NCBI RefSeq assembly: GCF_900187565.1
Contig: NZ_FYED01000002.1
Coordinates: 1 to 64,000 of the forward strand
DNA from: Pseudomonas sp. Irchel 3A7
Lineage (GTDB): Bacteria > Pseudomonadota > Gammaproteobacteria > Pseudomonadales > Pseudomonadaceae
Direction of reading: 5' to 3'
Length of the DNA: 64,000 nucleotides
Part shown: in pieces, positions 7,114 through 63,184 of the stretch
Position numbering within the stretch: the first letter of the stretch is position 1
How the letters are laid out: each line of letters starts with the position of its first letter
The notes under the pieces: generated by a model
The model's input: only the letters and a program-made list of their open reading frames with translations
Databases searched by the model: none
What the model was told of the DNA's origin: nothing
Translations under genes and position numbers: made by a program

Positions 7114-8766
7114 GTGAACGAAATCATTCGCGTACCCAACATCGGCAACGGTGACGGCGAAGTCATCGAGCTGTTTGTGCAAGCCGGTGACCGCATTGAA
7201 GCAGAACAAAGCATTCTTACTCTGGAATCAGACAAGGCCAGTATGGAAGTGCCTACACCGAAAGCAGGTGTCATTAAGAGTCTGAAGGTGAATCTGGGCG
7301 ATCGTCTGAAAGAAGGCGACGAACTGATTGTTCTGGAAACTGAAGATGCAGAAGTATCGGTGCCTATGCATGCACTCGTCCAGCCGACTGCCCCTAATGT
7401 AGAGCCAACTGGCGCCCATGCAACTGAAATGCCTTCTGTTGCCGCGCCAGGCAATAGCACTCAGCAAGTGTTGGTCCCTGACATCGGTTCTTCGGGTAAG
7501 GCACAGATCATTGAAATCCAAGTCAAGGTCGGCGACTCGGTCGAGGCAGACCAGTCGCTGATAACTTTGGAGTCGGACAAAGCGAGCATGGAGATCCCTT
7601 CACCCAGCCCGGGAGTAGTCGAAAGTCTCAACGTCAAGCTAAACGACCAAATTGGCTCTGGTGATCTTATTTTGGTGTTGAAGGTTGCTGGTGAGATGGG
7701 CGTAAAGCCGCAAGCACCGAAAGAGGTACCCGCGTCAGTTGAGACACCAGCCGCCTCCTCTACCGCAACGATCGCCCACCCCCCTGGCGATCAAAAAAAC
7801 GAGATTGCTACGCAAGCATCGAATGTCGTGTTAGCCAAGGCATCTGCCAAGGTTCACGCCGGCCCAGCCGTGCGTCAACTGGCCCGTGAATTTGGCGTTG
7901 ATCTGAGCGCTGTTGGTGCCAGTGGCCCGCACGGACGCATCCTCAAAGAAGACGTGCAGGTTTACGTTAAAGCCATGATGCAGAAGGCCAAGGAAGCGCC
8001 GGCCGCTGCTGCTGGCGCAACCAGTGGCGCGGGCATATCTCCGATTCCGGTCGTGGACTTCAGCCGTTTCGGCGAAATCGAAGAAGTGCCGATGCCACGC
8101 CTGATGCAGGTCGGTGCTGCCAACCTGCACCGCAGTTGGCTGAACGTACCGCACGTGACGCAATTCGACTCGGCCGATGTCACCGAACTCGAAGCGTTCC
8201 GTAACGCCCACAAAGCCTTTGCAGAGAAGGCCGGCGTCAAGCTGACCATCTTACCATTGCTGCTCAAGTCCTGCGCACACCTGCTCACGGAACTGCCGGA
8301 CTTCAACAGCTCGCTGGCTCCGAACGGCAAAGCGATCATCCGCAAGAAATACGTGAACATCGGCTTCGCAGTCGACACCCCTGATGGCCTGTTAGTACCG
8401 GTGATCAAGAACGTCGACCAGAAGAGCCTGCTGCAACTGGCCGCCGAAGCTGCTTCCCTGGCTGATAAAGCCCGGACCAAAAAGCTTTCGTCGGACGAGA
8501 TGCAAGGCGCCGGCTTCACCATTTCCAGCCTCGGCCACATTGGCGGCACCGGCTTCACGCCGATCGTCAACGCGCCAGAAGTGGCGATCCTCGGTGTTTC
8601 CAAGGCAACCATCCAGCCAGTCTGGGACGGCAACGCTTTCCAGCCGAAATTGATGCTGCCGCTGTCGCTGTCCTACGATCACCGTGTGATCAACGGCGCC
8701 GCCGCTGCACGCTTCACCAAGCGGCTAAGTGCGTTGCTTGGCGACTTACGGGAGCTATTGATGTAA
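7114..8766 (+). CDS. aceF: Pyruvate dehydrogenase E2, dihydrolipoamide acetyltransferase
   Basis: The 550-residue product forms the core of the pyruvate dehydrogenase complex and moves the acetyl group from its lipoyl arms to CoA. In order: two lipoyl domains, each with the lysine motif ESDKASME (about 37-46 and 153-162); Ala/Pro-rich linkers; a peripheral-subunit-binding domain around 250-285 (AVRQLAREFGVDLSAV); and the catalytic domain, with DHRVINGA near the C-terminus (Asn in place of Asp is also known in Azotobacter E2). The start is the GTG at 7114, behind the ribosome site AAGGAG at 7101-7106 that overlaps the aceE stop. A TTG six codons upstream lacks such a site. No lipoamide dehydrogenase gene follows, so E3 must come from elsewhere. 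Confidence 0.94.
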   Translation: MNEIIRVPNIGNGDGEVIELFVQAGDRIEAEQSILTLESDKASMEVPTPKAGVIKSLKVNLGDRLKEGDELIVLETEDAEVSVPMHALVQPTAPNVEPTGAHATEMPSVAAPGNSTQQVLVPDIGSSGKAQIIEIQVKVGDSVEADQSLITLESDKASMEIPSPSPGVVESLNVKLNDQIGSGDLILVLKVAGEMGVKPQAPKEVPASVETPAASSTATIAHPPGDQKNEIATQASNVVLAKASAKVHAGPAVRQLAREFGVDLSAVGASGPHGRILKEDVQVYVKAMMQKAKEAPAAAAGATSGAGISPIPVVDFSRFGEIEEVPMPRLMQVGAANLHRSWLNVPHVTQFDSADVTELEAFRNAHKAFAEKAGVKLTILPLLLKSCAHLLTELPDFNSSLAPNGKAIIRKKYVNIGFAVDTPDGLLVPVIKNVDQKSLLQLAAEAASLADKARTKKLSSDEMQGAGFTISSLGHIGGTGFTPIVNAPEVAILGVSKATIQPVWDGNAFQPKLMLPLSLSYDHRVINGAAAARFTKRLSALLGDLRELLM

Positions 8767-27022: not shown

Positions 27023-27661
27023 ATGGATTTGTACAATTTCTTCAACAGTTCCGCAGCGTATCGGGTGCGCATCGCCATGGCGCTGAAGAACATCGACTGG
27101 AACCCGATCGGCGTAAACCTGCGCGCAGGTGAACAGCACCATTCCGAGTATCAGGCGCTCAATCCGAACAGGTTGGTTCCGACGATGCACGATGGCGAGC
27201 AAACCATCACGCAATCATTGGCGATCATCGACTACCTCGATCGCAAATGGCCAGATCCGCGGCTGATTCCCGCCGACGGTCCGGCCCGCACACGGGTACT
27301 GGAACTAGCGTTGACCATCGCCTGTGACATGCACCCGTTGAACAATATGCGCGTGCAGAAGTACCTCAGCACGCACTTTGGCATCACCGACGCCGGCAAG
27401 TCCGAATGGGTCGAACATTGGCTCAGCGCCGGCTTCAGCGCGTTGGAGCCGTGGCTGCCCGAGGACGGTGGCTGGTGCGTCGGCGATGCGCCCACCCTTG
27501 CCGACTGTTGCCTGGTGCCGCAAGTCGCCAATGCGCTACGTGTCCAGTTCAGCCTGGACCCGTTCCCCCGCGTCCGCCGCGCCTATGAATATTGCATGCG
27601 TCACGTGGCATTCCGCGTGGCAGCGCCGAATGCCCAACCCGATTACGTAGCTGCCCACTGA
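27023..27661 (+). CDS. nagL: Maleylpyruvate isomerase (zeta-class glutathione S-transferase)
   Basis: The 212-residue product starts MDLYNFFNSSAAYRVRIAM, containing the SSxxYRVRIA glutathione-binding motif of zeta-class GSTs. An alpha-helical C-terminal domain from about 90 follows. The enzyme isomerises maleylpyruvate to fumarylpyruvate with glutathione as cofactor. The chosen start at 27023 has AAGGTGG eight bases upstream; a GTG nine bases earlier overlaps that site. It is 11 bases after the hydrolase gene, so tightly coupled. Its presence shows that this is the glutathione-dependent branch and not the direct maleylpyruvate hydrolase branch. Confidence 0.92.
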   Translation: MDLYNFFNSSAAYRVRIAMALKNIDWNPIGVNLRAGEQHHSEYQALNPNRLVPTMHDGEQTITQSLAIIDYLDRKWPDPRLIPADGPARTRVLELALTIACDMHPLNNMRVQKYLSTHFGITDAGKSEWVEHWLSAGFSALEPWLPEDGGWCVGDAPTLADCCLVPQVANALRVQFSLDPFPRVRRAYEYCMRHVAFRVAAPNAQPDYVAAH

Positions 27662-46261: not shown

Positions 46262-47180
46262 TCAGCATGCGGCGTTCTTGCGAATGATCAGTTCAAGTAT
46301 TGCAAACAAGCGGTGGTACAGATAATTGACGTGCTGAACATCAATCACGGGCTCCTGGCGGACCTCGTGATGGCGCAGAAGATGATTATTAGCGATGACA
46401 GTCAGCTCGCGAGCCTCCTTTTCAAGCAGGGTGCGAAAGCCGCTTTCTTCTGCACAACGGTCCAGGAGCAAGCCAATCGATTTCGCCTTATCGGCATGGG
46501 CGATCGATTTGATCCGCTCCCATGCATCGCAGAGGCGCTCCAACGCCTCGCGGCAAATCAAAGGACTGGGACCAGAGAACTTGCTCCGACTCTCCTCCAG
46601 CATAACGTCCAGAGTTGAATCGCCGGTACGCAGGTAAGGTCTCGACAAGGCCTCGCCGATCACCGCCGGCAAGACACGCCAGACCTGGCCGTCGGGTTTG
46701 AGCTCATATGCCAGGCCATTACGTTCGAAAATCCGGTTCACATCGTCGCGGAATGCATCACGTCCGGCGTCTTCGTCAAAGGTATAGTGATGATGCCGAT
46801 GGTAGTCATGGTACGAACCGATGATGATGGGTTTGGCGACTATGCGCCATACAAACTCCACGAGATCGAGCGCAATTAAAGTCTCTGGATGCCAAGGTTC
46901 ATCTGTACTGAGAAAGTCATCTTTGTCCCTATGCACCGTCGGCAGCGGCCAGGTTAAACCATCGAGTTCAGCCTCGATGGCCCCTTTCAGGGATTGCTCA
47001 TTGTTACCGCATATGGCGGTTCCGTCGGGACACTGCTCCGGGAAACGCCCCCCCCCCAAATGCACCCTGTTTTGCGAGTGCTGCCACAAGCGTAACAATC
47101 CCGACCCAGGCCACCTGCCCTATTTCCTATTCCGTCCTGGGGCGGGGGCCACGCTCACGATCACTAAAGTAGTCAGTCAT
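46262..47180 (-). pseudogene. AbiJ/HEPN-like defence protein, broken by a stop and a G-tract frameshift
   Basis: The frame from the ATG at 47180 starts MTDYFSDRERGPRPRTE and meets a TAG at 47129-47127 (codon 18, probably CAG in an intact copy). It then continues EIGQVAWVGIVTLVAALAKQGAFG into a run of ten G (plus strand C at 47048-47057). Nine G would join it in frame to FPEQCPDGTAICGNNEQ and the remaining ~255 residues down to 46262. The C-terminal part has NNHLLRHHEVRQEP, an R-x4-6-H-like motif of the kind in HEPN/AbiJ C-terminal domains (toxin RNases), so an abortive-infection protein is suspected. It is divergent from the SIR2-like gene. The lesions are seen directly; the family name is an inference. 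Confidence 0.6.
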
Positions 47181-47283
47181 TAATTCATCCTTGGTTGCCG
47201 AGTTTTTATAGAACTGGGCATGATAGTTCGCATTGACGCAGCGGCATATCATCTGCCAATCAAAACTACAGGAAGGATCCAGC

Positions 47284-48285
47284 GTGCCATTTGCCATTTC
47301 TTCGTGGGCCTATATTTCCCCTCAATACCATCGCGGTACAGTGCTACTGGGTAACGGAGCCAGCATGGCTGTGGCACCCAGCTTTGGCTACGGCTCATTG
47401 TTAGACCATGCTCGACAGAATGGACTTCTCAGCGACGTGGCCCGTCTGTTTGAGTTCTTCGATACCTCCGATTTCGAGCTCATCTTGCGTCTCGTTTGGC
47501 AGGCATCCAACGTCAACCTATCCCTAGAGATCCCCGATGACCGTACGCGCCAAGCCTATTTGCGTGTCAGGGACTGCTTGATTGAAGCGGTGCGGGCGGT
47601 GCACCCTGAGCACTGGGCGGTGCAGCACCATCTTCCCAATATGTACCGGTTCCTCAAATCGTTCGATACGATTCTCTCGTTCAATTACGATCTGTTGGTT
47701 TACTGGACCATGACCTATGGATTCAACATTGATGATGGTCATCTCTTCAAGGACTGCTTTGTCAGGTCCGTGTTTGATGACGATTGGCAAAAGTTTCGCG
47801 CCCGTTTCCGAGAGCGCACCAATACGCTCGTGTTTTATCCGCACGGAAGCCTCGCCCTATGTCGCAATGCAGTTGAACAAGAGTCCAAGATCCATGCCGC
47901 TGGGGCAGGATTGCTGGAGGCCATCCTAGACGAGTGGCGAGGTGAGCGTGTGGTACCGCTGTTCGTCAGCGAGGGAGTCAAAGCGCAAAAGGTTGCCTCG
48001 ATTCAGAGCAGCTATTACCTGTCGACGGTGTATCGGGAAGTACTGACATCTGAGCGGCAAACACTGACGCTGTTTGGCTGGGGTCTCGGCGGCCATGACC
48101 GGCACCTGCTTCAGCGCATGCGCAACACCGGCATCCAGCGCGTTGCCGTCTCCGTGTTTGGTGACGACCAGGTCTATTGCAACTACGCCCACCAGACTAT
48201 TCAGGATGATCTAGGCCAGGTACAGGTGGACTTTTTCAATTGCCTAAGCCCTGGATGCTGGATCCACCCATTGGCCGCGCAGTGA
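47284..48285 (+). CDS. SIR2-like DUF4917 protein
   Basis: The 333-residue product from the GTG at 47284 (AGGAAGG upstream) has the DUF4917 pattern: GTVLLGNGASMAV (19-31, like the G-x-G-x-S nucleotide loop of SIR2 folds), FDTILSFNYDLLVYW (about 127-141), a middle zone with FYPHGSLAL, and LTLFGWGLGGHDRHLL (about 262-277), the SIR2-type closing strand and loop. SIR2-like proteins in defence islands deplete NAD+ in infected cells; DUF4917 itself has no proven role. The catalytic Asn/Asp-type residues are plausible (N in FNYD). It is divergent from the AbiJ/HEPN-like pseudogene with a 103-base gap, and a 44-base C run starts 29 bases past the stop. Confidence 0.75.
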   Translation: MPFAISSWAYISPQYHRGTVLLGNGASMAVAPSFGYGSLLDHARQNGLLSDVARLFEFFDTSDFELILRLVWQASNVNLSLEIPDDRTRQAYLRVRDCLIEAVRAVHPEHWAVQHHLPNMYRFLKSFDTILSFNYDLLVYWTMTYGFNIDDGHLFKDCFVRSVFDDDWQKFRARFRERTNTLVFYPHGSLALCRNAVEQESKIHAAGAGLLEAILDEWRGERVVPLFVSEGVKAQKVASIQSSYYLSTVYREVLTSERQTLTLFGWGLGGHDRHLLQRMRNTGIQRVAVSVFGDDQVYCNYAHQTIQDDLGQVQVDFFNCLSPGCWIHPLAAQ

Positions 48286-48546: not shown

Positions 48547-50106
48547 TCAAGGCTTCGCTGGAACGCCACTCGATTTAACAGGAATCCGGAGCGGTGAGAT
48601 CCAATCCTGACGAAAGGGCAACCGGGCAGCGGGCGGTACAGGCAATCCGGGCAATGGCTCATGCCGTTGGATGATGCCACCGGCCTGACCATCAGTTTTT
48701 TTGGATTCTGAAAGATCGGCTTTGGCGGCGTTCACTGTAGGTTCACTGACAAAGCTGAATATCGATACGCCAACAAACATGGCTATCACGGCCCCCAGTC
48801 CAATCGCCGCCGAGTATGTAAACACTCGCTCTGACTTTTTGGCCGGTGCCGCGACCATCTTGTTGTATTCATCCTGCGGTAGGAAGCGGTAGAGTTTTGG
48901 TTGCCAGTCTTTTCGAAGTTCGCGCTGTAAACTGATGAAGCTCCATCCTGAGTAAACGATCAGCCCGATGTACCCAGTGGCTATCAGCATCACCATGCTG
49001 ATTAACCAGGGATTGATCGTAGTACTCAGGCGCGCGGCCACGAGGCCGACGCCCACGGCCAATGCGCCGGAAACAGCGGTAATAGTTTGTCGTGTGGCGT
49101 CAGTCGCTTTCGCGGTTTCTTCAGTAATGGCTTTGCGCAGATCGCCTAGCGACTTCAGGGTGTCTTTCCCTAACTCGGAGAGCGACATCTGATACGCGAT
49201 TTTTGCACTTTCCAGTGAGGTAGGGAGATTGGCTTTTAGGTAATCTGCAGCGTGGCCGTTCTCACGCCCTGAGCGGGCAATTTCCATCGCTAACAGGCTG
49301 TGTTTGACCTCTGCTTCGCGGGTATTTTCATAAACCCAATGTGCGGCCGTTTGCAGCTGCAGAAAAGCATCCATACCAAATTCTTGTATCATTATTGCAG
49401 TAGATTGCGGGGCTTGCAAAATGAGCTTGGGCGGCCCCTTGAATATCAGCGAATGATTGACTGGATCAATTTCATTCGCGAGCGTGTGCACTAATGCGTC
49501 AAACGCCTTCATAGCCCAGAGTTTATGGAATGGCTCGTTCAAATCAAACTGCGCTTGGTCGAGAAGGAGCCAGGGACGAATATCTCCCGGGACGATCTTC
49601 AAAGCGCCTGACTCTCTCACGAGTGCCCTGGGAGACTTGGTCACCGGTGCCGTCGTAATTGCAGCTGCCGCCGAATTTACGGCCGGCACGGCCCAGCCGC
49701 TATATTGGCGAACTTGAGTAAACAGCGGCTTGGAGAGACCCGCGATCCGCCAGCGGGTTGCTTCGTGCCCCTTTTCCAGCCACTGCGAAAGGCCCACGGA
49801 GGTTAAAATATCTAGCGTCTGCTCGGCATGATCCGGCTTGCGAAGGGTGAGGCGAAAAGGCTCGAAATCCTCAACAATATTGCCTGGCTCAGTGGGCGTT
49901 TGCTCCTCGTCAAACACCGAGCACTCCCAGCCGAGTCCCACGCAAGTAGCCAGTACCCGAAGCGTCGCGTCGGCACGCAAATTCGAGACGGTGATGCTCT
50001 CCTCACCCTCATTGATATGCGCGTTAGCCTGAGCAGCCAGTACATCCAGCTGTTCAGCGAGGATTGTCAGAGACAAGTTTGTCTTCCGTGATGGCCTGAG
50101 TATCAA
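48547..50106 (-). CDS. Hypothetical membrane protein, second gene of a two-gene unit
   Basis: Not recognised. The product has up to 519 residues. The N-terminal 330 residues are soluble and mostly helical, with no nucleotide-binding motif seen. Then come two firm membrane segments, at about 367-388 (MVMLIATGYIGLIVYSG) and 429-453 (AAIGLGAVIAMFVGVSIF), and perhaps a third at 342-360. A proline-rich tail follows. The longest frame starts at the TTG at 50106, overlapping the preceding gene by 53 bases. A TTG at 50076 or a start near the upstream stop (50054) is equally possible, so the true N-terminus is uncertain. The overlap points to coupled translation with the NdpA-like gene. A soluble sensor or effector with a membrane end is a common design in abortive-infection pairs. 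Confidence 0.75.
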   Translation of the reverse strand: MILRPSRKTNLSLTILAEQLDVLAAQANAHINEGEESITVSNLRADATLRVLATCVGLGWECSVFDEEQTPTEPGNIVEDFEPFRLTLRKPDHAEQTLDILTSVGLSQWLEKGHEATRWRIAGLSKPLFTQVRQYSGWAVPAVNSAAAAITTAPVTKSPRALVRESGALKIVPGDIRPWLLLDQAQFDLNEPFHKLWAMKAFDALVHTLANEIDPVNHSLIFKGPPKLILQAPQSTAIMIQEFGMDAFLQLQTAAHWVYENTREAEVKHSLLAMEIARSGRENGHAADYLKANLPTSLESAKIAYQMSLSELGKDTLKSLGDLRKAITEETAKATDATRQTITAVSGALAVGVGLVAARLSTTINPWLISMVMLIATGYIGLIVYSGWSFISLQRELRKDWQPKLYRFLPQDEYNKMVAAPAKKSERVFTYSAAIGLGAVIAMFVGVSIFSFVSEPTVNAAKADLSESKKTDGQAGGIIQRHEPLPGLPVPPAARLPFRQDWISPLRIPVKSSGVPAKP

Positions 50107-51112
50107 TCGTAATCAATTCCCCTCCGTTAGCCTTAGGCTCGCGGGTGACGGACATCCCCGCATCGTCTGGATACAGAACTGTAACGCCTTCAGTGGTTCG
50201 GATCCTGCGCATGGGCGGCCGCCCGAGGATTGCCTGATCAGAAGGAAACACCAAATTTTCAATTCTAGCGGAGCGAATCTTTCGCCGTGTTGCATTCTGC
50301 AACCTGCTGATCACCCTCTCATCGCCAGGGTTCCCCGCCGCCAACAGGACCGCATCAATGATCGCATCTTCGTTGATTTCTCGGCGCTGCGCTAAGCAGT
50401 TTTTGGCGATGGAAAACGCTCGCGGAACTGAATCTGGCAAATCGGCCTTACAAGAGGTTAAGGTTTCGCGTAACAGGCTAACGACCTTGGTGTTGAGTTC
50501 CTGATCAGACATCGAACGGACCACGTCGAGAAAGTTCGCAAAGTAATCAACGATTTCTGGCGCTTTTTTCATTCGGTCTCGGGCGGACACCAGGGTTTCC
50601 GCCACTCCGTTGACGACTCTCACCAAGGCGGACTTTTGAATCGCCTTTTTATCAGCGACAAACGCATGAACAATGCGTCGAAGCAGACCGCCGTCTTCCG
50701 CAGGAGCCTGCTCTATCGCCTCGCTGTAGTCATATTTAATCAGGCTATAGAGTTTTGTTTGCTCATCACCCCCGGACAACTCGAAGATGAACAATGCTCC
50801 GTCGCGACTGCTATTGACGTGCCAACGAGAAAACGTCGCGGAGAGACTCTGGGTTCCTCGCTCAAAATCTTCGGTCCCCGTCGCAATGCGCTCGAGCTGC
50901 GCTTTGGTCGCTGAGGTCTGCCTAAAGCTATAGATGGCATCCGCATCGGTATCGAGTATTCGCGCGATGAAAAACTCTTCATGCTCGACTTGGCGTACGG
51001 ACTCCGGGGTAAATTCGTCCCCACCGACGACGTGCAGGATCATGTTGGTGATCCTCAGGTCAGCCGCCTCTCCCTCTGTAAAAAAACCCACTGCTCTCTC
51101 CCTGACTCGCAA
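50054..51112 (-). CDS. NdpA-like (nucleoid-associated protein family) protein
   Basis: The 352-residue product has an N-terminal half reading like the YejK/NdpA family: ITNMILHVVGGDEFTPESV at about 20-38, EEFFIARILDTDADAIYSF, then GALFIFELSGGDEQTKLYSLIKYDYSEAI (about 104-132), matching the family stretch that ends in a KLDYK-type strand. The C-terminal half is helical and charged, ending in a beta-rich piece (ITEDKLVSDNPR). NdpA proteins bind the nucleoid in Escherichia and Pseudomonas; several phage-defence units carry relatives of this fold. Here it is paired with, and overlaps, the membrane protein gene at 48547-50106. The family call is moderate. Confidence 0.65.
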   Translation of the reverse strand: MRVRERAVGFFTEGEAADLRITNMILHVVGGDEFTPESVRQVEHEEFFIARILDTDADAIYSFRQTSATKAQLERIATGTEDFERGTQSLSATFSRWHVNSSRDGALFIFELSGGDEQTKLYSLIKYDYSEAIEQAPAEDGGLLRRIVHAFVADKKAIQKSALVRVVNGVAETLVSARDRMKKAPEIVDYFANFLDVVRSMSDQELNTKVVSLLRETLTSCKADLPDSVPRAFSIAKNCLAQRREINEDAIIDAVLLAAGNPGDERVISRLQNATRRKIRSARIENLVFPSDQAILGRPPMRRIRTTEGVTVLYPDDAGMSVTREPKANGGELITIDTQAITEDKLVSDNPR

Positions 51113-51731: not shown

Positions 51732-51983
51732 GAACAATCCTCCCTGAAGCGTACAGCCTAGCAGCAACAAGCAACGCGGCACGCTCCAGCTAGAGGGGCT
51801 TACCCAGGATTAGTAAACTCCGCACGGAACTCAAGGGGGGGGGCAGTGAGATGGCCAACATCGGCCAGAGGTGAACTTTTCAATACGCAGGGGGTGGCGG
51901 CTTGAGACGAAGGCGTCGAACCTGCCGATGCGCCGAACTGGGCGACAGCCGCTTGCCAGCAAGGGAGCGGGAAACACTTGATG

Positions 51984-52667
51984 TTATGACAGCGCTACAC
52001 CGAAACGCATTTTCTTCAGCGGAAGCGGTGGTTTTGTCCCGGTAAGGTTTTGAATAAGCGTATCGGTCAGATTGATTTCGTTATTCAGTTCGTTCAGTTC
52101 TGCATCGTGCACGGCAGCCGTGATTTTGTGATCGGCCAGAAGTTTTGACAGCTGGGCTTTTTGATCCTGGAGCGAGGCGAGCTCTTTCGCTGTCAGCTTC
52201 AAAGCGTGCAAGGTCGTTTTTCGAAACTCCACTTGCGTGTGATCGTTGAGCAGCAGAAGCTCTTCCGTGTACTCGCCAAACTTTGAGCGCACCGTCATCA
52301 TGCCGTTGCCTGCGTCGAACCTGAGGTGCTGGCTCATGATGTAATCACAGGGGTTGACAATGTACGGCCCATCTTTTTCATTGACTGGCCAGTCATTATT
52401 CTTGCGGGAATTACAGCTCCCGCAACAGTAGTACAGATTCTGGTAATCGCACACCAAGTGCGCAAATTTTGCGACACCCTTGGGTTTGTAATGATCAACC
52501 CCGAAGTTTAAATTGGGGGCGCTGCTGTCAGGCTGACGACAGTAAACGCAGGTCCTCGAGAACTCGTGCTGCAAATAGCGCTTATACGTCTGATATCGCT
52601 TAAACAGTCGAGGCGTCAACGACCTGGTATGTTTGGATTTGGGATATTGAAAGACGGTAATATTCAA
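51984..52667 (-). CDS. HNH endonuclease
   Basis: The 227-residue product has a zinc-type HNH nuclease core: C40-x2-C43 (CVYC), D58-H59 (VDHYKPKG) with the catalytic histidine, then C82-x2-C85 (CGSCNSRKN) and a proline (NDWPV). The order matches HNH proteins found with retrons, Septu (PtuB) and other phage-defence units. The C-terminal 100 residues are helical and coiled-coil-like. It is the last of a three-gene operon; its ATG overlaps the stop of the middle gene by four bases. It probably cuts DNA when activated by its partners (inference from family and context). Confidence 0.87.
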   Translation of the reverse strand: MNITVFQYPKSKHTRSLTPRLFKRYQTYKRYLQHEFSRTCVYCRQPDSSAPNLNFGVDHYKPKGVAKFAHLVCDYQNLYYCCGSCNSRKNNDWPVNEKDGPYIVNPCDYIMSQHLRFDAGNGMMTVRSKFGEYTEELLLLNDHTQVEFRKTTLHALKLTAKELASLQDQKAQLSKLLADHKITAAVHDAELNELNNEINLTDTLIQNLTGTKPPLPLKKMRFGVALS

Positions 52668-53182
52668 ATTTGCAATCCCAATCTTTTTGCGCGTTCCAGC
52701 CGCGACTGTTCAATCGCCTTCACCGATACGATAGAGCTTTCCAGCGAGTTGATTTGCTCGACAGTCACTCGAGGGGAGCGCTCGATCAGCCTAGAGTTAA
52801 GTATCTCCAGTCGCGCAATGATTTCTGCAGAAATGGAATCGTTCGCATATTTTATCGCAAGGAGCCTGATTCGGGCCTCGGCGATTTTACTGACTTCCGC
52901 CTCTTTTCCTTCCGCGGGTCTCTCGTGAGCGGGGGCACGGAATGAAACGATGTCCGCGCTTTTAGGCAGCAGCGCAGTCGCGTCGACCTGCCGAGCACTG
53001 CTGGGCAGCTTTTCCGTGGCATCCATATCCCGCGACCCTATATTGAGACCGGGATAATCATTGGCCAAGAAACGGGTGGCACCATAAGCATTTGCCGTAG
53101 AGGACCTTCGACCTGAAGCGGCCTGTGACGCATAAAAACCTGAAGGAGACGGCGCTGGCGTGACCGCTACGTAAAAATCCAT
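52664..53182 (-). CDS. Hypothetical protein between TIGR04255 and HNH genes
   Basis: Not recognised. The 172-residue product starts MDFYVAVTPAPSPSGFYASQ. The first 100 residues are low in hydrophobic content and rich in S, A and P, so likely flexible. The last 65 (EIIARLEILNSRLIE, then the INSLESSIVSVKAIEQSRLERAKRL stretch) are helical, with heptad-like spacing. It starts eight bases after the stop of the TIGR04255 gene, and its stop overlaps the HNH start (ATGA), so the three are one operon. A start further upstream (53383) would overlap the TIGR04255 gene deeply and is not favoured. The protein may be an adaptor that holds the nuclease. Confidence 0.7.
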   Translation of the reverse strand: MDFYVAVTPAPSPSGFYASQAASGRRSSTANAYGATRFLANDYPGLNIGSRDMDATEKLPSSARQVDATALLPKSADIVSFRAPAHERPAEGKEAEVSKIAEARIRLLAIKYANDSISAEIIARLEILNSRLIERSPRVTVEQINSLESSIVSVKAIEQSRLERAKRLGLQI

Positions 53183-53189
53183 GATCCAA

Positions 53190-54014
53190 TCATCCTTTTG
53201 AATGGCGGGCGTCTGTGGATAAAAAGTTTCTCGCCTTATCGGTGAGCGACCAATCGAACAGGTCAAAGGCTTGGCGATGCATGATATCGATGGCAGCAGG
53301 GGTCTGTGACAATGACACCTCGGTGCGATAGGTATCGATGTCCAGGAGATACTCAACCTTCGGCGGGGCATCGGCTTTTGCACGATTTAGCTGAATGCCG
53401 TGCTGGAATAAACAGCCGCCATCTTCGGCCAAAAGCTGCATCCTGCCACCAAAATCATTAATGCCGAGGAAACTTTCTGACGTGATGGGCGCGGTCAGAT
53501 AAGGGTTTATCCAGTGGGTAACATCCTCATCCCCGCTACTGACTACATTGATGTAGCGCAAACCGATACGGGTAAAAAAATCAGAATCGATAATCTTTTC
53601 GGCCGCCTCAACCACGTGAAGAACGCGCTCTCGTAGATTATCGAACCCGGTGTAGGCGGTGGTTTCAATCGACAGCGAATTCTCTTTTAGCGAAATACTC
53701 CAGGTGGCTTTGGCTGACCTGAAAATATGAATATGGCTAGAACCTGTGTTTCCCATCCCGATGCCGAGCGTGAATTCATTACTCATCTCTAAAACGGGAT
53801 ATTCTTTACGCAACGCTTTAACGAAAGAGGACGGTGGACGTTGTTCGCCAAGCTCCATGAGTGTTGGAAAACGGAGCTCGCAAACGGCCTGCTTCAAAAA
53901 ATTACGCTGAAAGCGATTTTCATTGTCAGACCGAGTACGTACTAATCCGTCAGCTTTCCACAATGCGCTCATGAGGTACTCATCGCTAGGTACAAAAGGT
54001 GGCCATGATGGCAT
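53190..54014 (-). CDS. TIGR04255-family protein
   Basis: The 274-residue product fits the sporadically distributed TIGR04255 family: the early FLKQAVCELRFPTL (about 40-53), FRSAKATWSISLKENSLSIETTAYTGFDNL (about 95-125) and FTRIGLRYINVV (about 148-159) form the conserved beta/alpha core. A tail ending RNFLSTDARHSKG follows. The family often lies in defence islands, beside nucleases or reverse transcriptases; no enzyme activity is known. It is the first gene of the three-gene operon with the HNH nuclease. The promoter is probably in 54015-54367, a 353-base gap in which no gene was found. Confidence 0.8.
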   Translation of the reverse strand: MPSWPPFVPSDEYLMSALWKADGLVRTRSDNENRFQRNFLKQAVCELRFPTLMELGEQRPPSSFVKALRKEYPVLEMSNEFTLGIGMGNTGSSHIHIFRSAKATWSISLKENSLSIETTAYTGFDNLRERVLHVVEAAEKIIDSDFFTRIGLRYINVVSSGDEDVTHWINPYLTAPITSESFLGINDFGGRMQLLAEDGGCLFQHGIQLNRAKADAPPKVEYLLDIDTYRTEVSLSQTPAAIDIMHRQAFDLFDWSLTDKARNFLSTDARHSKG

Positions 54015-54367
54015 GGAAACCTACTACTGTCAGTATGCAGCGCCGGCACCGCTCCCACCGATTCACCGGCCTACTTGGGCAGTATAGCCAGCATTTGAAA
54101 GGGCGATTCGAGGTTCCTGGCGTTCGCGGTCGCCAGCGATCTGGCGTCGACCGCGTACTGTTTTGTCCGCAAGCATAGCTCGCCGAAGCGCGTTGCTGAC
54201 CGTCACGAAGCACGGGAATCTGCCAATACAGTGGCCCGCTGTTCCCCGGGCAGTTGACCAATACCCGGTTTACACACACTTCCACTGCACCTGCCGGGCA
54301 GCGCACGGTACCCGGCCTGAGGCGAGAGCAGGCCGTCGCGATGAAGACGGTTGCCCGTTGCTCGGGC

Positions 54368-56576: not shown

Positions 56577-57485
56577 TTACCGTCGCCATTCCCCAAAAGG
56601 AGCGGTGGTGTCGATGTAACGCATCGCTGACTGCACGTCGCGCCAACCGACATAATCCATCAAGGCCTTAACCCCCCACTCGTTACGATTGGCCCAGGTC
56701 GCAAAACCGCGACGCAGCGAATGGCCGCTGTAACCTTCCCCATCCAGGCCATTGCGCGCGAAGGCCATGCGCAACAGCCGCGACAGACTGTTCGAATTCA
56801 GGCCCTCGGCACTGACATGCCCCCAGCGATCAATGGCGCGGAACACCGGTCCTTGCTGCAGACCGCTGGCCGCCAACCAGGCCTCGTACGCCGCCACCGG
56901 ACACAGCCGCTTCAGCGCCGGCACCATGACGGTCCGTCCTTGATGATCACGATCGGTTTTGTCACTGACGAGGAAGATTTCCAAGCTGACACCCGTTTCG
57001 ACTTTGATGTGCTCGATGCGTAGCAGGCACAGATCGTCGCTCCGAAACGCGCGCCAAAAACCGAGCAAGATGAGCGACTGGTCGCGACAGGCGCGCAGTC
57101 GTTCGGCGGCCACCGTGGAGTTGGCCTGCTCATTTAATCCAGCGATGCAATCCTCCAGCGCCTGCAGCTGCAGCGCCTCGGCCCGTTTGACCGGCTGGGG
57201 ATGCTCGGCGCGAATACCACGCAGCACATCCCGCACCTTGGGCTCCTTGGTCGGGTCGACAAAGCCATGGCGCTTGTGCCACTGCGCCAAGGCGGCCAAG
57301 TGGGTATGCAGGGTCGAACTGGAGAGCTGCTCCGCATAGGTCGCCAGATAGCGCGCGACACTTTCGCTGGAGGCGGGCAATAACCCCTGCCAGGTCCCTT
57401 CAAAATGCTCAAGCGCACTGAGGTAACGACGTTGCGTACTCGCCCGCCGCGCTGCCTTCACGTACCGATCCACTGGGGCCGTCAC
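56577..57485 (-). CDS. Tyrosine-type site-specific recombinase
   Basis: The product is about 302 residues if started at the GTG at 57485 (VTAPVDRYVKAA, with GAGGGTGGG upstream); an ATG at 57569 would give 330. The catalytic residues are visible: arginine in the FWRAFRSDDL box I, lysine in SDKTDR, HSLRRGFATW (box II H-x-x-R) and the final VGWRDVQSAMRYID with tryptophan and the tyrosine nucleophile. An N-terminal SAM-like domain spans about 10-110. It is divergent from a KfrA-like gene, as TnpS is from TnpT in Tn4651-type transposons, which suggests a cointegrate-resolution or site-specific integration role. Confidence 0.88.
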   Translation of the reverse strand: MTAPVDRYVKAARRASTQRRYLSALEHFEGTWQGLLPASSESVARYLATYAEQLSSSTLHTHLAALAQWHKRHGFVDPTKEPKVRDVLRGIRAEHPQPVKRAEALQLQALEDCIAGLNEQANSTVAAERLRACRDQSLILLGFWRAFRSDDLCLLRIEHIKVETGVSLEIFLVSDKTDRDHQGRTVMVPALKRLCPVAAYEAWLAASGLQQGPVFRAIDRWGHVSAEGLNSNSLSRLLRMAFARNGLDGEGYSGHSLRRGFATWANRNEWGVKALMDYVGWRDVQSAMRYIDTTAPFGEWRR

Positions 57486-57628
57486 GCCACCCACCCTCCT
57501 CGCATACCCCTGAAAAACCAAATATTGCCCAAAAACCCTCTCACGTTTGAGAATTCCGCATTCATGCACGTCAGTTCGTCATCTGCCTCCCTTCCCCACA
57601 GGACATTTGTACGGGTGTACTTCCATAC

Positions 57629-57646
57629 TTCGTAACACGCTACGAA
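57629..57646. promoter_or_regulatory. Inverted repeat in the recombinase/KfrA divergent region
   Basis: Arms TTCGTA (57629-57634) and TACGAA (57641-57646) with a 6-base centre lie just before the KfrA-like start. They may be a binding site of the KfrA-like protein or of the recombinase. Confidence 0.45.
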
Positions 57647-57663
57647 ATAGTAGGAGACCGCAC

Positions 57664-58692
57664 ATGGCTCGTGGAGGCATCAACAAGGCGCTGGTGCGAA
57701 TTGCCCGCGAAGCGCTCATCGCCCGCGGCATTCGCCCCAGTATCGACGCGGTGCGCGTGGAGCTCGGCAATACCGGCTCCAAGAGCACCATCCTGCGCTA
57801 CCTGCGCGAGCTCCGCGCCCCCGAGACCTCGACCGTGCCGGTGGCCCTCAACGACGAACTGGCGCACCTCGTGGCAAGTGTAGCCGAGCGTGTTCAGGAG
57901 CAAGCCCGGCAGGCCGTGAGCGAAGACCAGACGCGGGTCGACGACGCGTGGCGGCGACATGCGCAAGCCCAGGCGCAACAACGCGAACTGATCGACGCGT
58001 TGCAGGAACAAGTGCGCCAGCTGGATAGCCAGTTAGTCGAGTACCGCGCTCGTGAACAGCAACTGCAGACGCGTTCGAATGAATTACAGGGGATTTACAA
58101 TTCTCAGCAGCTGGAGATGAGTGAGTTGCAGCAGGAGCTCAGCAAGCGGGATCTGCTGGTCCAATCGCTCAACGAGCGCTGCGAACATCTGAAGGCGTCA
58201 CTGGACCACTATCGCGAACAGCAACGTGCACTACGCGATCAGGACCTTGAGCGCAATGACCAGCAGCTGCAACAACTGCTCAGGGAACAACGCACCCTGC
58301 AAGCGACCCTGCTGCACAAGCAGGAAGAAATCGCCCAGCTCAATCGTGACAATGAGCGGCTGCTCACCGAGGCCCGGCTGACGGCGCGCCAAGCGTCGAG
58401 TGACGCCCAGGAATTTCGCCAGGCCCAGGCCGCCTGGCAGGAACGGGCTCACACCCACCAAGAGGCGCAGGCGCAGTGGCAGGCCGAGCAAGCCGACCTG
58501 CGCAGCCGATTGCGCGCCGCCCTCCTCAAGCAGCGTGGAGATGCTCATTACATTCGCAACGAGCAGCGGCAAATCACCCACCTGCAGCGGCTGCTGGAGT
58601 CACGGCCGCCTTCAGCGCCTGAGCCTGGCGGCGCTCCGTCACCCCAGCCGGCATCACCTTCCGTGCGCGCAGAAGCAGCGCCGAGCCGCTGA
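57664..58692 (+). CDS. KfrA-type DNA-binding coiled-coil protein
   Basis: The 342-residue product starts MARGGINKALVRIAREALIARG, and its first 60 residues match the KfrA N-terminal DNA-binding domain (RPSIDAVRVELGNTGSKSTILRYLRELRAPE). From about 75 to 320 it is a long coiled coil very rich in Q, E, R and L (for example QLQQLLREQRTLQATLLHKQEEIAQL). KfrA proteins bind centromere- or operator-like DNA in plasmids. In Tn4651-type elements, TnpT has this build and helps the TnpS recombinase. The start at 57664 has TAGGAG eight bases upstream; an earlier one at 57547 would overlap the regulatory region. Confidence 0.85.
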   Translation: MARGGINKALVRIAREALIARGIRPSIDAVRVELGNTGSKSTILRYLRELRAPETSTVPVALNDELAHLVASVAERVQEQARQAVSEDQTRVDDAWRRHAQAQAQQRELIDALQEQVRQLDSQLVEYRAREQQLQTRSNELQGIYNSQQLEMSELQQELSKRDLLVQSLNERCEHLKASLDHYREQQRALRDQDLERNDQQLQQLLREQRTLQATLLHKQEEIAQLNRDNERLLTEARLTARQASSDAQEFRQAQAAWQERAHTHQEAQAQWQAEQADLRSRLRAALLKQRGDAHYIRNEQRQITHLQRLLESRPPSAPEPGGAPSPQPASPSVRAEAAPSR

Positions 58693-60372: not shown

Positions 60373-60666
60373 CACGGGGCATCGCACAGATCGCCCGAGT
60401 CTCCCGACGTGAGTGGCACACCCACCCCCTCGCGTACTGGCGCCGATAAGCGCCGCTAGCGATCTCCGCCCGTCACGCTGACTGCCCCACGGCAACCTAT
60501 TGGCGGCATAACGAGCCGAGCGGATTGACCAGCGCGAAGCGGGTCTGCCCGCTTCGCGCGGCACCGTCACCGTCACCGAGCAACCGTCCGTGGCGGTCGG
60601 GTACTGCGGATGGCCTTTAGTCTGCCGCCGTCATTGCTCATTCATCTCCCCCTGAGGAGAACCATC

Positions 60667-61314
60667 ATGTTGGCTTCACGCAACCGTCCCGAAGAAAACC
60701 TCGCCCGTGCACCTTTGACCAAAGGACGCCCGGGCAGTCGAGTCACGTTTTTTCCTTCGCGAAAAAATGCTGGCCCCGTCGCTTGCGGCAATCTGCAGCA
60801 GGCTGATTACTGTGTCCATCTGGAGTACCGCCCGGATGTCCTCACCTACCAATGCCGACCACCCACCGTGTGCCGCGAGGCGCGACGCTACAAGGCCGAC
60901 TTTCTCGTCACGCTGAGTAGCGGGCCACCGATTTATCTCAAATTCCTCCCCGCAGACGGTCAACCGGGGGCACTGAACCGTAACCAAAAACAAGCCGTGG
61001 ATACGATGCTTCACGAGCGCAATCTGTTGTTTCGTTGGCTGGTTCCCGGAGACCTTCCGCATCCGTTGGTGACCTACAACTTGCGCACCCTTTACCACCA
61101 CAGCTTTGGCAGTTCTCTGCAGGCGGCAGAGCAAGTGCGCGCATACGTCACAGCCCTGAAAGACCAGCAGGTGACGTTCGAGGCACTGCTCGCCAGTGGC
61201 GCCACGTCCGCCGCTATCTGTCACGCCATTTTCCTAGACGAGCTGCAGATCGACCTTGAGCAACAGCTCACCCCACATACTCTGATTTACGGAGGCCGTC
61301 ATGGGCATCTTTGA
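60667..61314 (+). CDS. tnsA: TnsA-like endonuclease of a Tn7-like transposon
   Basis: The 215-residue product carries the TnsA N-terminal endonuclease pattern: HLEYRPDVLTYQCRPP (51-66) with E53, RRYKADFLV (73-81) with D78, and IYLKF with K92. These correspond to the E63/D114/K132-type active site of Tn7 TnsA (with Q or L allowed before the lysine). A helical C-terminal part (about 140-215) is where TnsA contacts TnsC. TnsA cuts the 5' ends of the element, giving cut-and-paste transposition. The start at 60667 has GAGGAGA upstream; an earlier frame at 60610 is not favoured. The stop overlaps the tnsB start by 14 bases. Confidence 0.82.
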   Translation: MLASRNRPEENLARAPLTKGRPGSRVTFFPSRKNAGPVACGNLQQADYCVHLEYRPDVLTYQCRPPTVCREARRYKADFLVTLSSGPPIYLKFLPADGQPGALNRNQKQAVDTMLHERNLLFRWLVPGDLPHPLVTYNLRTLYHHSFGSSLQAAEQVRAYVTALKDQQVTFEALLASGATSAAICHAIFLDELQIDLEQQLTPHTLIYGGRHGHL

Positions 61315-63184
61315 ATTCAAAGTCGGTGAACACTACCGCTATCGCGGACAACGCTTTCAAATCGTCGACCTACAAGGTGATTGCGTACAACTGCGTGCCA
61401 TTGAGGGACGCCGGACCGTGCTGCGCCAGACCCAGGACATTCTGCTTCGCGCAATGAAGCGTGGTGCCCTCGTTAAAGATCAGGAAGCGCCGATTGAGCA
61501 GGATCCGCAAAAAATCATCGCCGGTATGCCCAAGCCTTACGCTGCTGTATTCGACCGCCATTGTTACTACACCCAGGGACTGATGGACGAACTGCATGGC
61601 CGAATGCCAACGGGACGCGCCCAGGCAGTGATCCAGCGCTTGGCAAAGAAGATCAACGATATCTGCCCGCCCAGCCTGAGCACGGCACGTAGTTGGGTCC
61701 GAACCTTTTGCAAATCGGGTTACAGCTATCTGTCGCTCATCCCGGGCCGCAAACAAAAAATGAAACATCGCCTGGACCACCAGCCGTGGGAAATTCAGCA
61801 GATCATCAAGCAGCAGGTTAAAGATCTCTATCTGAAATTAGAGCCCGCCTGTAAAACCGAAGTGATCGATGCCATTGTCCTGGAACTGGAAGCGTTCAAC
61901 GACGGCAGACCCAAACACGACAGGCTGAGGATACCTTCGACATCGACCCTCAATCGGATCCTCCGAGAGCTGGACGCGTATGAAACAGCTTGTGCCCAGC
62001 ACGGCAGTAAGTACGCACAGAAAAAGCAAGGCTGGACCCGTAAACGGCCACGCCCGGGACGGCTGTTCGAACTGGTGGAAGCTGACACTCAGCAGATGCA
62101 CGTCATGGCAGTGAATGACCGAGGCGAGGTGATCGGTCGCCCGTACCTGACCGTTTTCCTGGAGGTCTATACGCGGATGCCCTACGCCTGGAGCATCGGG
62201 TTTAATCCCCCCTCTCTGGACACCACCCTCCAGGCACTACGATGGTCGTTATCCAGCGACAATATGTACGGCGGTGTCGCCACGCGTTATGTCTTCGACA
62301 GCGGCCCTGAGTTCGTGGCGGATAACCTGCGACGCATCATAGCGCTGCTGGGCGGTGAGGTTTGTTATTGCGAACCGGGCACCGGCAATCAAAAACCTCA
62401 CATGGAAGCCTTTTTCGGCGTCTGGTCGAAAGAGATCGCCCACGAGATGCCCGGTACGACATTCTCCGATATTGCCACCCGTGGCGATTACAACGCTGAA
62501 AAAAACGCGCGCCTGACCATCGAAGAGATCAGAGATATCTTCGGTCGCTGGGTGAACGAGGCGTATTGCGAACGGGTCCACAGCAGCCTGAACACCTCCC
62601 CCCGCCTCGCCTGGGAGGCGGCTTACTCGACCATGCTCCCACCGCGACGTTATTCGCCCTCGGAGCTGCGTCAGCATTTCTTAAGCGCGTTCGAAGCCTC
62701 GCCCCAACAAGGTCGGCTGCGGTACAAGTCGCTGTTCTGGACGGGGCCTGCCGTGCCGTACCTGGCCAACCGCCAACCGAAAGTGGACAAGCTGCTTGTC
62801 TATTACGACCCCAGTGACCTGGGTCGTGCATGGGCCTGCCATCCCAGCTATCCCGATGAGGTACTTGAGCTGCAGGCAGTCGATCCCGACTATCAGGAAG
62901 GACTGACCCTGCACCTGCATCAATTGATTCTTAAACGTCTGAAAACGGAGCGCGAAACCTTCAATCCGCGCAAGGCACAACGCGCTCGCATTACGCTGCT
63001 GCGAGAGTTGGCCAAGGTCAAAACACCAGCACAACGGCGCCAGCATCAACGTGCAGTGGAAAAAGGTTCTCTTCAGAAACCACACAAGCGCCACGCACGG
63101 ATACTAAGCACCAAACCTAATACGCCTGACGATTATCGCCATCACGGTGATACGCCGGACGATTATTCGTCTGTGGAGGTTTGA
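61301..63184 (+). CDS. tnsB: TnsB/Mu-type DDE transposase
   Basis: The 627-residue product is a retroviral-integrase-type transposase. Helical DNA-binding domains cover about 60-245. The catalytic core shows D262 (LVEADTQ), D333 (VFDSGPEFV) and E369 (PHMEAFFG). D333 and E369 are 35 residues apart, as in the canonical DD35E spacing. A Mu-type C-terminal domain and a lysine/arginine-rich tail follow. TnsB binds the element ends and joins the 3' ends to target DNA. The ATG at 61301 has GGAGG-like sequence upstream and overlaps the end of tnsA. Confidence 0.92.
   Translation: MGIFEFKVGEHYRYRGQRFQIVDLQGDCVQLRAIEGRRTVLRQTQDILLRAMKRGALVKDQEAPIEQDPQKIIAGMPKPYAAVFDRHCYYTQGLMDELHGRMPTGRAQAVIQRLAKKINDICPPSLSTARSWVRTFCKSGYSYLSLIPGRKQKMKHRLDHQPWEIQQIIKQQVKDLYLKLEPACKTEVIDAIVLELEAFNDGRPKHDRLRIPSTSTLNRILRELDAYETACAQHGSKYAQKKQGWTRKRPRPGRLFELVEADTQQMHVMAVNDRGEVIGRPYLTVFLEVYTRMPYAWSIGFNPPSLDTTLQALRWSLSSDNMYGGVATRYVFDSGPEFVADNLRRIIALLGGEVCYCEPGTGNQKPHMEAFFGVWSKEIAHEMPGTTFSDIATRGDYNAEKNARLTIEEIRDIFGRWVNEAYCERVHSSLNTSPRLAWEAAYSTMLPPRRYSPSELRQHFLSAFEASPQQGRLRYKSLFWTGPAVPYLANRQPKVDKLLVYYDPSDLGRAWACHPSYPDEVLELQAVDPDYQEGLTLHLHQLILKRLKTERETFNPRKAQRARITLLRELAKVKTPAQRRQHQRAVEKGSLQKPHKRHARILSTKPNTPDDYRHHGDTPDDYSSVEV

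What the first reader, a model, noticed from the sequence alone, without database searches (positions are those of the whole stretch)
51984..54014. Three-gene TIGR04255 - unknown - HNH operon: candidate undescribed defence system
The three genes are coupled (8-base gap, then a 4-base overlap), with an HNH nuclease as effector, an unrecognised flexible/coiled middle protein, and a TIGR04255 protein of unknown function first. They lie in the middle of a defence island. I do not recognise this exact combination as a named system.
Basis: partly seen in the sequence, partly recalled or inferred. Interest (0 to 1): 0.65.

Follow-up and report, generated by a model that had tools for sequence, protein, structure and literature searches.

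The report
Modular three-gene nuclease toxin cassette
This is a conserved three-gene bacterial cassette, one variant of a large and seemingly undescribed family in which the same first gene is paired with different toxin-like genes, here a DNA/RNA-cutting enzyme related to one used against viruses; whether it protects against viruses is not yet tested.

Summary
The operon is real: TIGR04255 (53190-54014), an unrecognised middle gene (52664-53182) and an HNH nuclease (51984-52667), all on the minus strand. The triple recurs in the same order at nine separate loci, one of them decayed. The five relatives found by a viral-contig scan with the nuclease alignment, and both genomes matched by a middle-gene profile, carry all three genes. 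More distant nucleases of this kind (26-38% identity) do not.

The nuclease is PtuB-like, as in Septu and retron-Eco7, but no PtuA ATPase lies beside it.

The larger finding is that TIGR04255 is the constant first gene of a widespread three-gene unit. In a 398-genome sample, 27 of 30 judgeable TIGR04255 genes have two tightly linked followers, against 5 of 37 control genes. Second and third genes come in matched, swappable pairs. One common third family is predicted to have the MazF/CcdB toxin fold.

Best explanation: a tripartite toxin system in which TIGR04255 and the middle protein hold the nuclease inactive, probably until phage infection. The unit and its modularity are well supported; the direction of control and the defence role are inferred. 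No profile library used names the triple, and no paper of the held library contains 'TIGR04255'.

The parts
53190..54014 (-). Gene 1: TIGR04255 family protein, 274 aa (or about 260 aa if translation starts at the ATG at 53972); the constant member of the wider unit
   Evidence: NCBIfam TIGR04255, 134 bits, cut-off 30; homologues at nine loci
52664..53182 (-). Gene 2: middle protein, 172 aa; variable N-terminal half, conserved C-terminal part
   Evidence: ORF; conserved C-terminal part in eight copies; no library match
52667..52897 (-). Conserved C-terminal part of the middle protein (residues 96-172), proposed contact to the nuclease (inferred)
   Evidence: alignments of 4 and 8 copies
51984..52667 (-). 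Gene 3: PtuB-like HNH nuclease, 227 aa, TTG start, overlapping gene 2 by 4 bases; proposed effector
   Evidence: PADLOC PtuB 8.4e-20; NCBIfam PtuB 41 bits, below the cut-off of 150
52389..52550 (-). HNH core with Cys40, Cys43, Asp58, His59, Asn77, Cys82, Cys85, Asn86 and Lys89 (residues 40-93)
   Evidence: identical in the eight intact copies aligned
54005..54033 (-). Promoter-like site with TG before the second hexamer (9 of 12 matches); weak
   Evidence: not above chance as a class

Best explanation
The operon is one variant of a modular tripartite toxin unit. SHOWN: a constant first gene (TIGR04255) is followed by a middle gene and a third gene that come in matched, swappable pairs; here the third gene is a PtuB-like HNH nuclease. 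SHOWN BY PREDICTION: another common third family has a MazF/CcdB toxin fold, so the third gene is probably the toxin or effector. INFERRED: TIGR04255 and the middle protein form a complex with the HNH protein that keeps it inactive, the middle protein touching the nuclease through its conserved C-terminal part. TIGR04255 would be the shared sensor or stabiliser, much as the SecB-like chaperone is in toxin-antitoxin-chaperone systems. A trigger, most likely a phage product, would disturb the complex and free the nuclease to cut nucleic acid (tRNA by analogy with PtuAB of retron-Eco7 and Septu EcB88, or DNA), stopping growth and phage production.
For: Triple conserved at nine loci. All 5 relatives from the viral-contig scan with the HNH alignment and both genomes matched by the middle-protein profile (2 of 369) carry the triple. 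The wider unit: 27 of 30 judgeable sample loci have two tight co-directional followers against 5 of 37 control genes. Matched middle/third clusters. In the 6 of 6 plasmid records that hold third family E1 it lies third behind TIGR04255 (one by coordinates only). E2 model: MazF/CcdB fold; E1 is related to E2 by profile, 89.9%. L050 third ORF is a PemK toxin. HTH middle family E 5.9e-8. HNH core conserved. PtuB-type nucleases act in phage defence (passages).
Against: No experiment. No interaction was predicted (single chains only). The HNH family is unrelated to the other third families, so the toxin reading of E2 does not carry over by homology. PtuA and PtuB expressed singly did not stop growth; both were needed (passage), so a PtuB-like protein may need activation rather than restraint. 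The window's middle protein has no HTH match and no strong hydrophobic N-terminal segment. E3, E4 and E6 have no recognised fold. The E2 Foldseek matches do not reach E 0.001.
Confidence: 0.5

Rival explanations
1. Septu-like activation: TIGR04255 and the middle protein take the place of PtuA as infection sensor and activator and switch on an otherwise silent HNH nuclease.
For: The nuclease is PtuB-like and PtuAB toxicity needs both proteins (passage). In 8 of 10 other Pseudomonas loci with such an HNH gene a Walker A ORF lies within the fetched flanks, whereas here it is missing and two other genes stand in the operon.
Against: TIGR04255 has no NTPase motif in its sequence (one search lists no Walker A site near the operon). 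Other TIGR04255 units carry MazF-fold third genes, toxins that in known systems are restrained by an antitoxin rather than switched on (established knowledge).
Confidence: 0.25
2. Selfish addiction module: a tripartite toxin-antitoxin that stabilises the mobile element carrying it, with no defence role.
For: Copies lie on plasmids (other third-gene types), on predicted viral contigs, beside recombinases, and are sporadic: 1 of 398 same-genus genomes matches P0001, its own.
Against: The window copy lies near two PADLOC defence candidates, L005 near an RnlA-type toxin gene, L079 near type I restriction-modification genes. Addiction and defence are not exclusive.
Confidence: 0.15
3. Restriction-like system: TIGR04255 recognises foreign DNA and the HNH protein cuts it.
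For: Weak fold resemblance of TIGR04255 to TATA-binding protein among many unrelated folds. HNH enzymes often cut DNA; a Septu from E. [quoted passage not shown]
Against: The fold scores are in the range that the tool calls uninformative. The same TIGR04255 family partners MazF-fold proteins, for which DNA targeting is not expected.
Confidence: 0.1

Closest known systems
Septu (PtuA-PtuB) and the PtuAB effectors of type I-A retrons (retron-Eco7/Ec78)
   Same: PtuB-like HNH nuclease with the H and N residues in place; H and N of PtuB are needed for Septu EcB88 defence (passage)
   Different: No PtuA ATPase beside it; TIGR04255 and a middle gene instead; far below the PtuB equivalog cut-off (41 against 150 bits)
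Toxin-antitoxin-chaperone (TAC) systems, including CmdTAC
   Same: Three genes; one constant partner combined with varying antitoxin and toxin families (passages)
   Different: TIGR04255 has no sequence match to SecB or any other Pfam family; the constant gene comes first; the window's middle protein shows no strong hydrophobic segment; chaperone function untested
Type II toxin-antitoxin systems of the MazEF/CcdAB fold class
   Same: The E2 third genes of other TIGR04255 units are predicted to have the MazF/CcdB fold; one locus has a PemK toxin third
   Different: A third, TIGR04255 gene is fixed in the unit; in this window the third gene is an HNH protein, not MazF-like
NCBIfam TIGR04255 (sporadically distributed family)
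   Same: Gene 1 is a full member (134 bits, cut-off 30)
   Different: The entry as returned by the scan names no function or partner genes; here a fixed three-gene context is shown

Membership tests
NCBIfam TIGR04255 | score above the curated cut-off | tested here: met
   134 bits against 30
Septu | PtuB-like HNH nuclease | tested here: met
   PADLOC PtuB profile 8.4e-20; H59 and N77 align with the HNH of other Pseudomonas loci
Septu | score above the PtuB equivalog cut-off | tested here: not met
   41.2 bits against 150
Septu | adjacent PtuA ATPase | tested here: not met
   Walker A pattern in ORFs of 100 codons or more only at 27380 and 63586 of the window; no PtuA among the ten neighbouring ORFs scanned
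Retron type I-A | reverse transcriptase and msr-msd beside PtuAB | tested here: inconclusive
   no reverse transcriptase among the ten neighbouring ORFs scanned against PADLOC; msr-msd RNA was not searched for
TAC system | SecB-like chaperone gene | tested here: inconclusive
   no Pfam match of TIGR04255 at E<=1; fold search lists no SecB among the rows shown, which does not exclude it
TAC system | antitoxin depends on the chaperone | not testable with these tools
   needs co-expression; no strong hydrophobic N-terminal segment in the window's middle protein
Type II toxin-antitoxin | third gene is a toxin neutralised by its neighbour | not testable with these tools
   toxin fold predicted for E2 units, not for this HNH protein; neutralisation needs experiment
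TIGR04255-led three-gene unit (described here) | TIGR04255, middle and third gene, same strand, tightly linked, conserved | tested here: met
   nine loci of the HNH variant; 27 of 30 judgeable sample loci
Anti-phage defence system | protects cells from phage | not testable with these tools
   only context: two PADLOC defence candidates near the window copy

The most novel reading that the evidence does not exclude
TIGR04255 is the common hub of a so far unrecognised class of tripartite immunity and addiction systems in bacteria, their mobile elements and at least one archaeal virus. One sensor or stabiliser guards interchangeable antitoxin-toxin pairs: MazF-fold toxins, possibly PemK and HEPN-like proteins and, here, a PtuB-type nuclease. 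PtuB nucleases would then have been recruited separately by an ATPase (Septu, retrons) and by TIGR04255.
Probability: 0.45. Interest if true: 0.85.

Novelty: new variant of a known kind. Interest (0 to 1): 0.68.

Why it matters
TIGR04255 was found in 30 of 398 sampled genomes of the phylum, yet the libraries used give it no function and no partners. Showing that it leads a fixed three-gene unit, with toxin-like third genes in part of the family, turns an orphan family into a testable class of tripartite toxin systems and gives several unannotated families a joint context. It also suggests a second way of controlling PtuB-type nucleases, without PtuA.

Tried and rejected
Filing it as Septu: rejected, no PtuA. 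Filing it as a retron: no reverse transcriptase among the ten ORFs scanned; msr-msd was not searched. TIGR04255 as a SecB-type chaperone: no Pfam match, and SecB is not among the listed fold rows, which does not exclude it. TIGR04255 fold: matches to AdoMet decarboxylase/prozyme, TBP and guanidino kinases were judged too weak to use. A PDB sequence search with its profile gave five matches, four to Sp-100 (best E 0.0056) and one to OspC (0.46), judged chance. The HNH protein had none at E<=1.

A shared N-terminal motif of the middle proteins seemed present at first but was an artefact: those ORFs had been extended upstream into the TIGR04255 gene in another frame (starts about 100 bases or more before its stop). 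A common hydrophobic N-terminal segment is not general. The middle protein found nothing in plasmids, whole or as its C-terminal part, and as a single sequence nothing in viral contigs. The operon DNA has no match in E. coli genomes. The HNH protein has no match in the phage collection.

Results against or limiting: P0001 as a single sequence matched 1 of 398 same-genus genomes, its own, and P0002 1 of 199, so the HNH variant is rare. P0003 as a single sequence matched 10 further same-genus genomes of 199 at 26-38% identity; in these a Walker A ORF was seen in the flanks of 8 of 10, so distant HNH relatives occur without the triple. It also matched 11 plasmid records at 26-33% identity, whose neighbours were not examined. 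L053 is a TIGR04255 gene with no partners; L070 is cut by its contig end. Of 12 TIGR04255 loci in the second viral scan, 4 carry the HNH triple, 2 the M2+E2 pair, 3 only a middle-like match and 3 no assigned partner. Of 21 loci in the genome-contig scan, 2 are HNH, 12 E2, 2 E4 and 5 unassigned or cut; one of the E4 loci is the same genome place as a sample locus. Of 12 plasmid records with TIGR04255, 9 were opened. Of the nine HNH loci, no defence or mobile-element gene was matched beside L137 and L139 in the few ORFs scanned, and the surroundings of L117 were not scanned.

Full report
WHAT IS THERE. Three minus-strand genes lie at 51984-54014: TIGR04255 (274 aa), an unrecognised middle protein (172 aa) and an HNH protein (227 aa, TTG start). 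The first gap is 7 bases and the second junction a 4-base overlap (read). Gene 1 scores 134 bits for NCBIfam TIGR04255 against a cut-off of 30 and has no Pfam match at E<=1. Gene 2 matches nothing in Pfam, NCBIfam or PADLOC at E<=1, nor in PHROGs at E<=0.01. Gene 3 matches a PADLOC PtuB profile at 8.4e-20, NCBIfam PtuB at 41 bits, far below its cut-off of 150, and Pfam HNH just below cut-off (18.5 against 21.4 bits).

SURROUNDINGS. On one side lie two PADLOC defence candidates: 46262-47098 (PDC-S32; AbiJ_NTD4 below cut-off in Pfam) and 47233-48285 (PDC-S21; DUF4917), then two genes at 48547-51112 without PADLOC matches, one of them NA37-like below cut-off. On the other side lie a recombinase-like ORF (identified by reading), a KfrA_N protein and a TnsB-like transposase. 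ARAGORN finds no tRNA gene in the window. The Walker A pattern occurs in long ORFs only at 27380 and 63586.

THE SAME TRIPLE ELSEWHERE. Two viral-contig copies were found first, L004 and L005. A genome scan with a TIGR04255 alignment added L078 (Pseudomonas laurylsulfativorans; the 7671 bp of L004 are identical to it, so these count once) and L079 (a Pseudomonadota MAG). A search of 369 class genomes with the middle protein's profile alone matched only the own genome and G948. There the hit lies between TIGR04255 (in two pieces) and the HNH gene (one internal stop): a decayed copy. A viral scan with the HNH alignment alone returned five loci, two known and three new (L135, L136, L137; 45-53% identity); all five carry TIGR04255 and the middle gene directly upstream. 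A TIGR04255 scan added L139. That makes nine separate loci: window, L078, L005, L079, L117 (G948), L135, L136, L137 and L139. This does not hold for every relative of the nuclease: with P0003 as query, 10 further same-genus genomes of 199 have more distant HNH hits (26-38% identity), 8 of the 10 with a Walker A ORF in the fetched flanks, as expected for Septu.

DNA similarity between the window and L005 covers 51978-54036 in two pieces and stops at the operon edges; with L078 it covers 52198-54036. Non-synonymous differences are far below synonymous ones in all three genes among the three closest copies, although synonymous sites are near saturation. Distances of the three proteins over eight copies correlate (TIGR04255-HNH r 0.92, TIGR04255-middle 0.82, middle-HNH 0.85; 3, 5 and 7 of 2000 permutations as high). 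The eight copies aligned share Cys40, Cys43, Asp58, His59, Asn77, Cys82, Cys85, Asn86 and Lys89 of the HNH protein. Neighbours of other copies: L005, an RnlA-type toxin gene; L079, type I restriction-modification genes; L078, a D12-class DNA methyltransferase; L135, an integrase and a rolling-circle initiator; L136, an integrase. Nothing informative was matched beside L137 and L139, and L117 was not scanned.

A WIDER MODULAR UNIT. In 398 genomes drawn from the phylum, 30 carry TIGR04255 above cut-off, and none of 14 control genomes does. Flanks of these loci were fetched. By one ORF rule, 27 of 30 judgeable loci have two co-directional followers with gaps of at most 60 bases, against 5 of 37 genes of similar length in 13 random windows of the same contigs (two control genes undetermined). 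The 30 leave out the window itself and L070, which is cut by its contig end. Of the three failures, L058 and L069 have a third-gene profile match that ORF picking had hidden; L053 stands alone.

All-against-all comparison of the follower genes over the sample, plasmid and genome-contig loci gives matched clusters of middle and third genes: M1 (HTH) with E1, about 280 aa; M2 with E2, about 200 aa; M3 with E3; M4 with E4; M5 (two sub-clusters) with E5; M6 (two sub-clusters) with E6; M8 with E8; and M7 with the HNH family E7. E1 and E2 are related by profile (89.9%), E3 and E6 more weakly (63.7%), and E7 to none. The families were defined on these loci, so the pairing within the set is descriptive; the reverse tests are independent of it. 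All six plasmid records that hold E1 have it third behind TIGR04255: five were read in annotation and one judged by coordinates. An archaeal virus (host Methanobacteriales) has TIGR04255 followed by two genes with 4-base overlaps, the third HEPN-like by my reading only (no Pfam match). The window's own genome holds a second unit on contig C6, with a TIGR04255 match below cut-off (26.7 against 30 bits) and the M3+E3 pair.

On a tree of 64 TIGR04255 proteins the HNH variant, four rows, is one supported group (99/99). Third-gene types need 16 changes (8 is the least possible, 42.0 the shuffled mean), so types follow the tree but appear to have been swapped; one of the nine labels stands for unassigned types and accounts for several changes.

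THIRD GENES. The E2 protein, modelled from 11 sequences (pLDDT 84.3), has MazF-family toxins in its 50 listed Foldseek rows (best E 3.6e-3, probability 1.00; none reaches E 0.001). The listed VIA-align rows are MazF, CcdB, Kid and related toxins, best Z 11.0 over 116 residues at 3.1 A. At L050 the third ORF is a PemK toxin (1.1e-18), although that pair could be an ordinary neighbour. One HTH middle protein matches HTH_19 (5.9e-8). Representatives of E1, E3, E4, E5 and E8 have no Pfam match above cut-off; representatives of E1-E6 and E8 have none in PADLOC at E<=0.1 and none above cut-off in NCBIfam. E2 and E6 were not scanned against Pfam.

TIGR04255 FOLD. The model (22 sequences, pLDDT 82.1, pTM 0.79) is an alpha/beta protein. 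Its matches to AdoMet decarboxylase/prozyme, TBP and guanidino kinases are at the level that the tools call uninformative.

HOW IT MOST LIKELY WORKS. The parallel is a tripartite toxin-antitoxin unit with one constant partner. In TAC systems SecB-like chaperones serve several antitoxin families (PMC5105189, abstract and passages), and in CmdTAC a phage capsid protein draws off the chaperone, so that the antitoxin is degraded and the toxin freed (PMC11618068, passages). I propose that TIGR04255 plus the middle protein restrain the HNH nuclease and that infection releases it. For PtuB-type nucleases the reported outcomes are tRNA-Tyr loss or cleavage (PMC11555353 and PMC13096335, passages) and, for another Septu, action on nicked DNA (cited in PMC11555353). 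The opposite sign, activation as by PtuA, remains a real rival because PtuB alone did not stop growth (passage).

KNOWN OR NEW. It is not Septu (no PtuA), no retron reverse transcriptase was matched among the ten ORFs scanned, and TIGR04255 shows no sequence kinship to SecB. The term 'TIGR04255' occurs in no paper of the held library. Listings for PtuB with HNH and Septu, TIGR02646, modular three-gene defence and tripartite toxin-antitoxin terms showed no paper on such a unit in the titles and abstracts listed. DefensePredictor (PMC13092281), searched for HNH, TIGR, Septu and Ptu, mentions HNH only in passing. Preprints, supplements and newer system databases were not available, so an existing name elsewhere cannot be excluded.

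CONFIDENCE. The conserved triple: very high. TIGR04255 as leader of a modular three-gene unit: high. Third gene as effector or toxin: good for E2 and E7, fair for E1 and L050, open for the others. Restraint with release on infection: about even.

Noticed in passing
window 46262-48285: Two candidate defence genes: PADLOC PDC-S32 (AbiJ_NTD4 below cut-off in Pfam) and PDC-S21 (DUF4917), on opposite strands.
   Followed up: partly
window 48547-51112: Two overlapping minus-strand ORFs, one NA37 (nucleoid-associated)-like below cut-off, the other without a Pfam match; no PADLOC match for either.
   Followed up: no
window 56577-58692: A recombinase-like ORF (by reading) next to a divergent KfrA_N coiled-coil protein; this recalls the TnpS/TnpT resolution genes of Tn4652-type transposons (recalled, not tested).
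   Followed up: no
window 60610-63184: Two adjoining genes, the second TnsB-like (PADLOC TnsB 5.6e-13) and the first perhaps TnsA-like by reading: possibly part of a Tn7-like element.
   Followed up: no
L077 (own genome, contig C6, around 8149-8664): A second unit in the same genome: a TIGR04255 match below cut-off followed by the M3 and E3 families.
   Followed up: partly
L110 (BK063677.1, 51298-52942): An archaeal virus carries TIGR04255 and two further genes with 4-base overlaps.
   Followed up: partly
L008 1204-3501: A TIGR04255 unit on a Rhizobium plasmid lies just behind a multiubiquitin - ThiF - DUF6527 operon.
   Followed up: no
L046, L047, L008, L097 third genes: The E4 family has conserved Cys and His residues (GLTCAT motif) that could belong to a cysteine peptidase; by reading only.
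   Followed up: no
window, L078 and L005 copies: The window's TIGR04255 is closest to L078 (82% against 72% for L005) but its HNH is closest to L005 (80% against 73%), a hint of recombination within the cassette.
   Followed up: no
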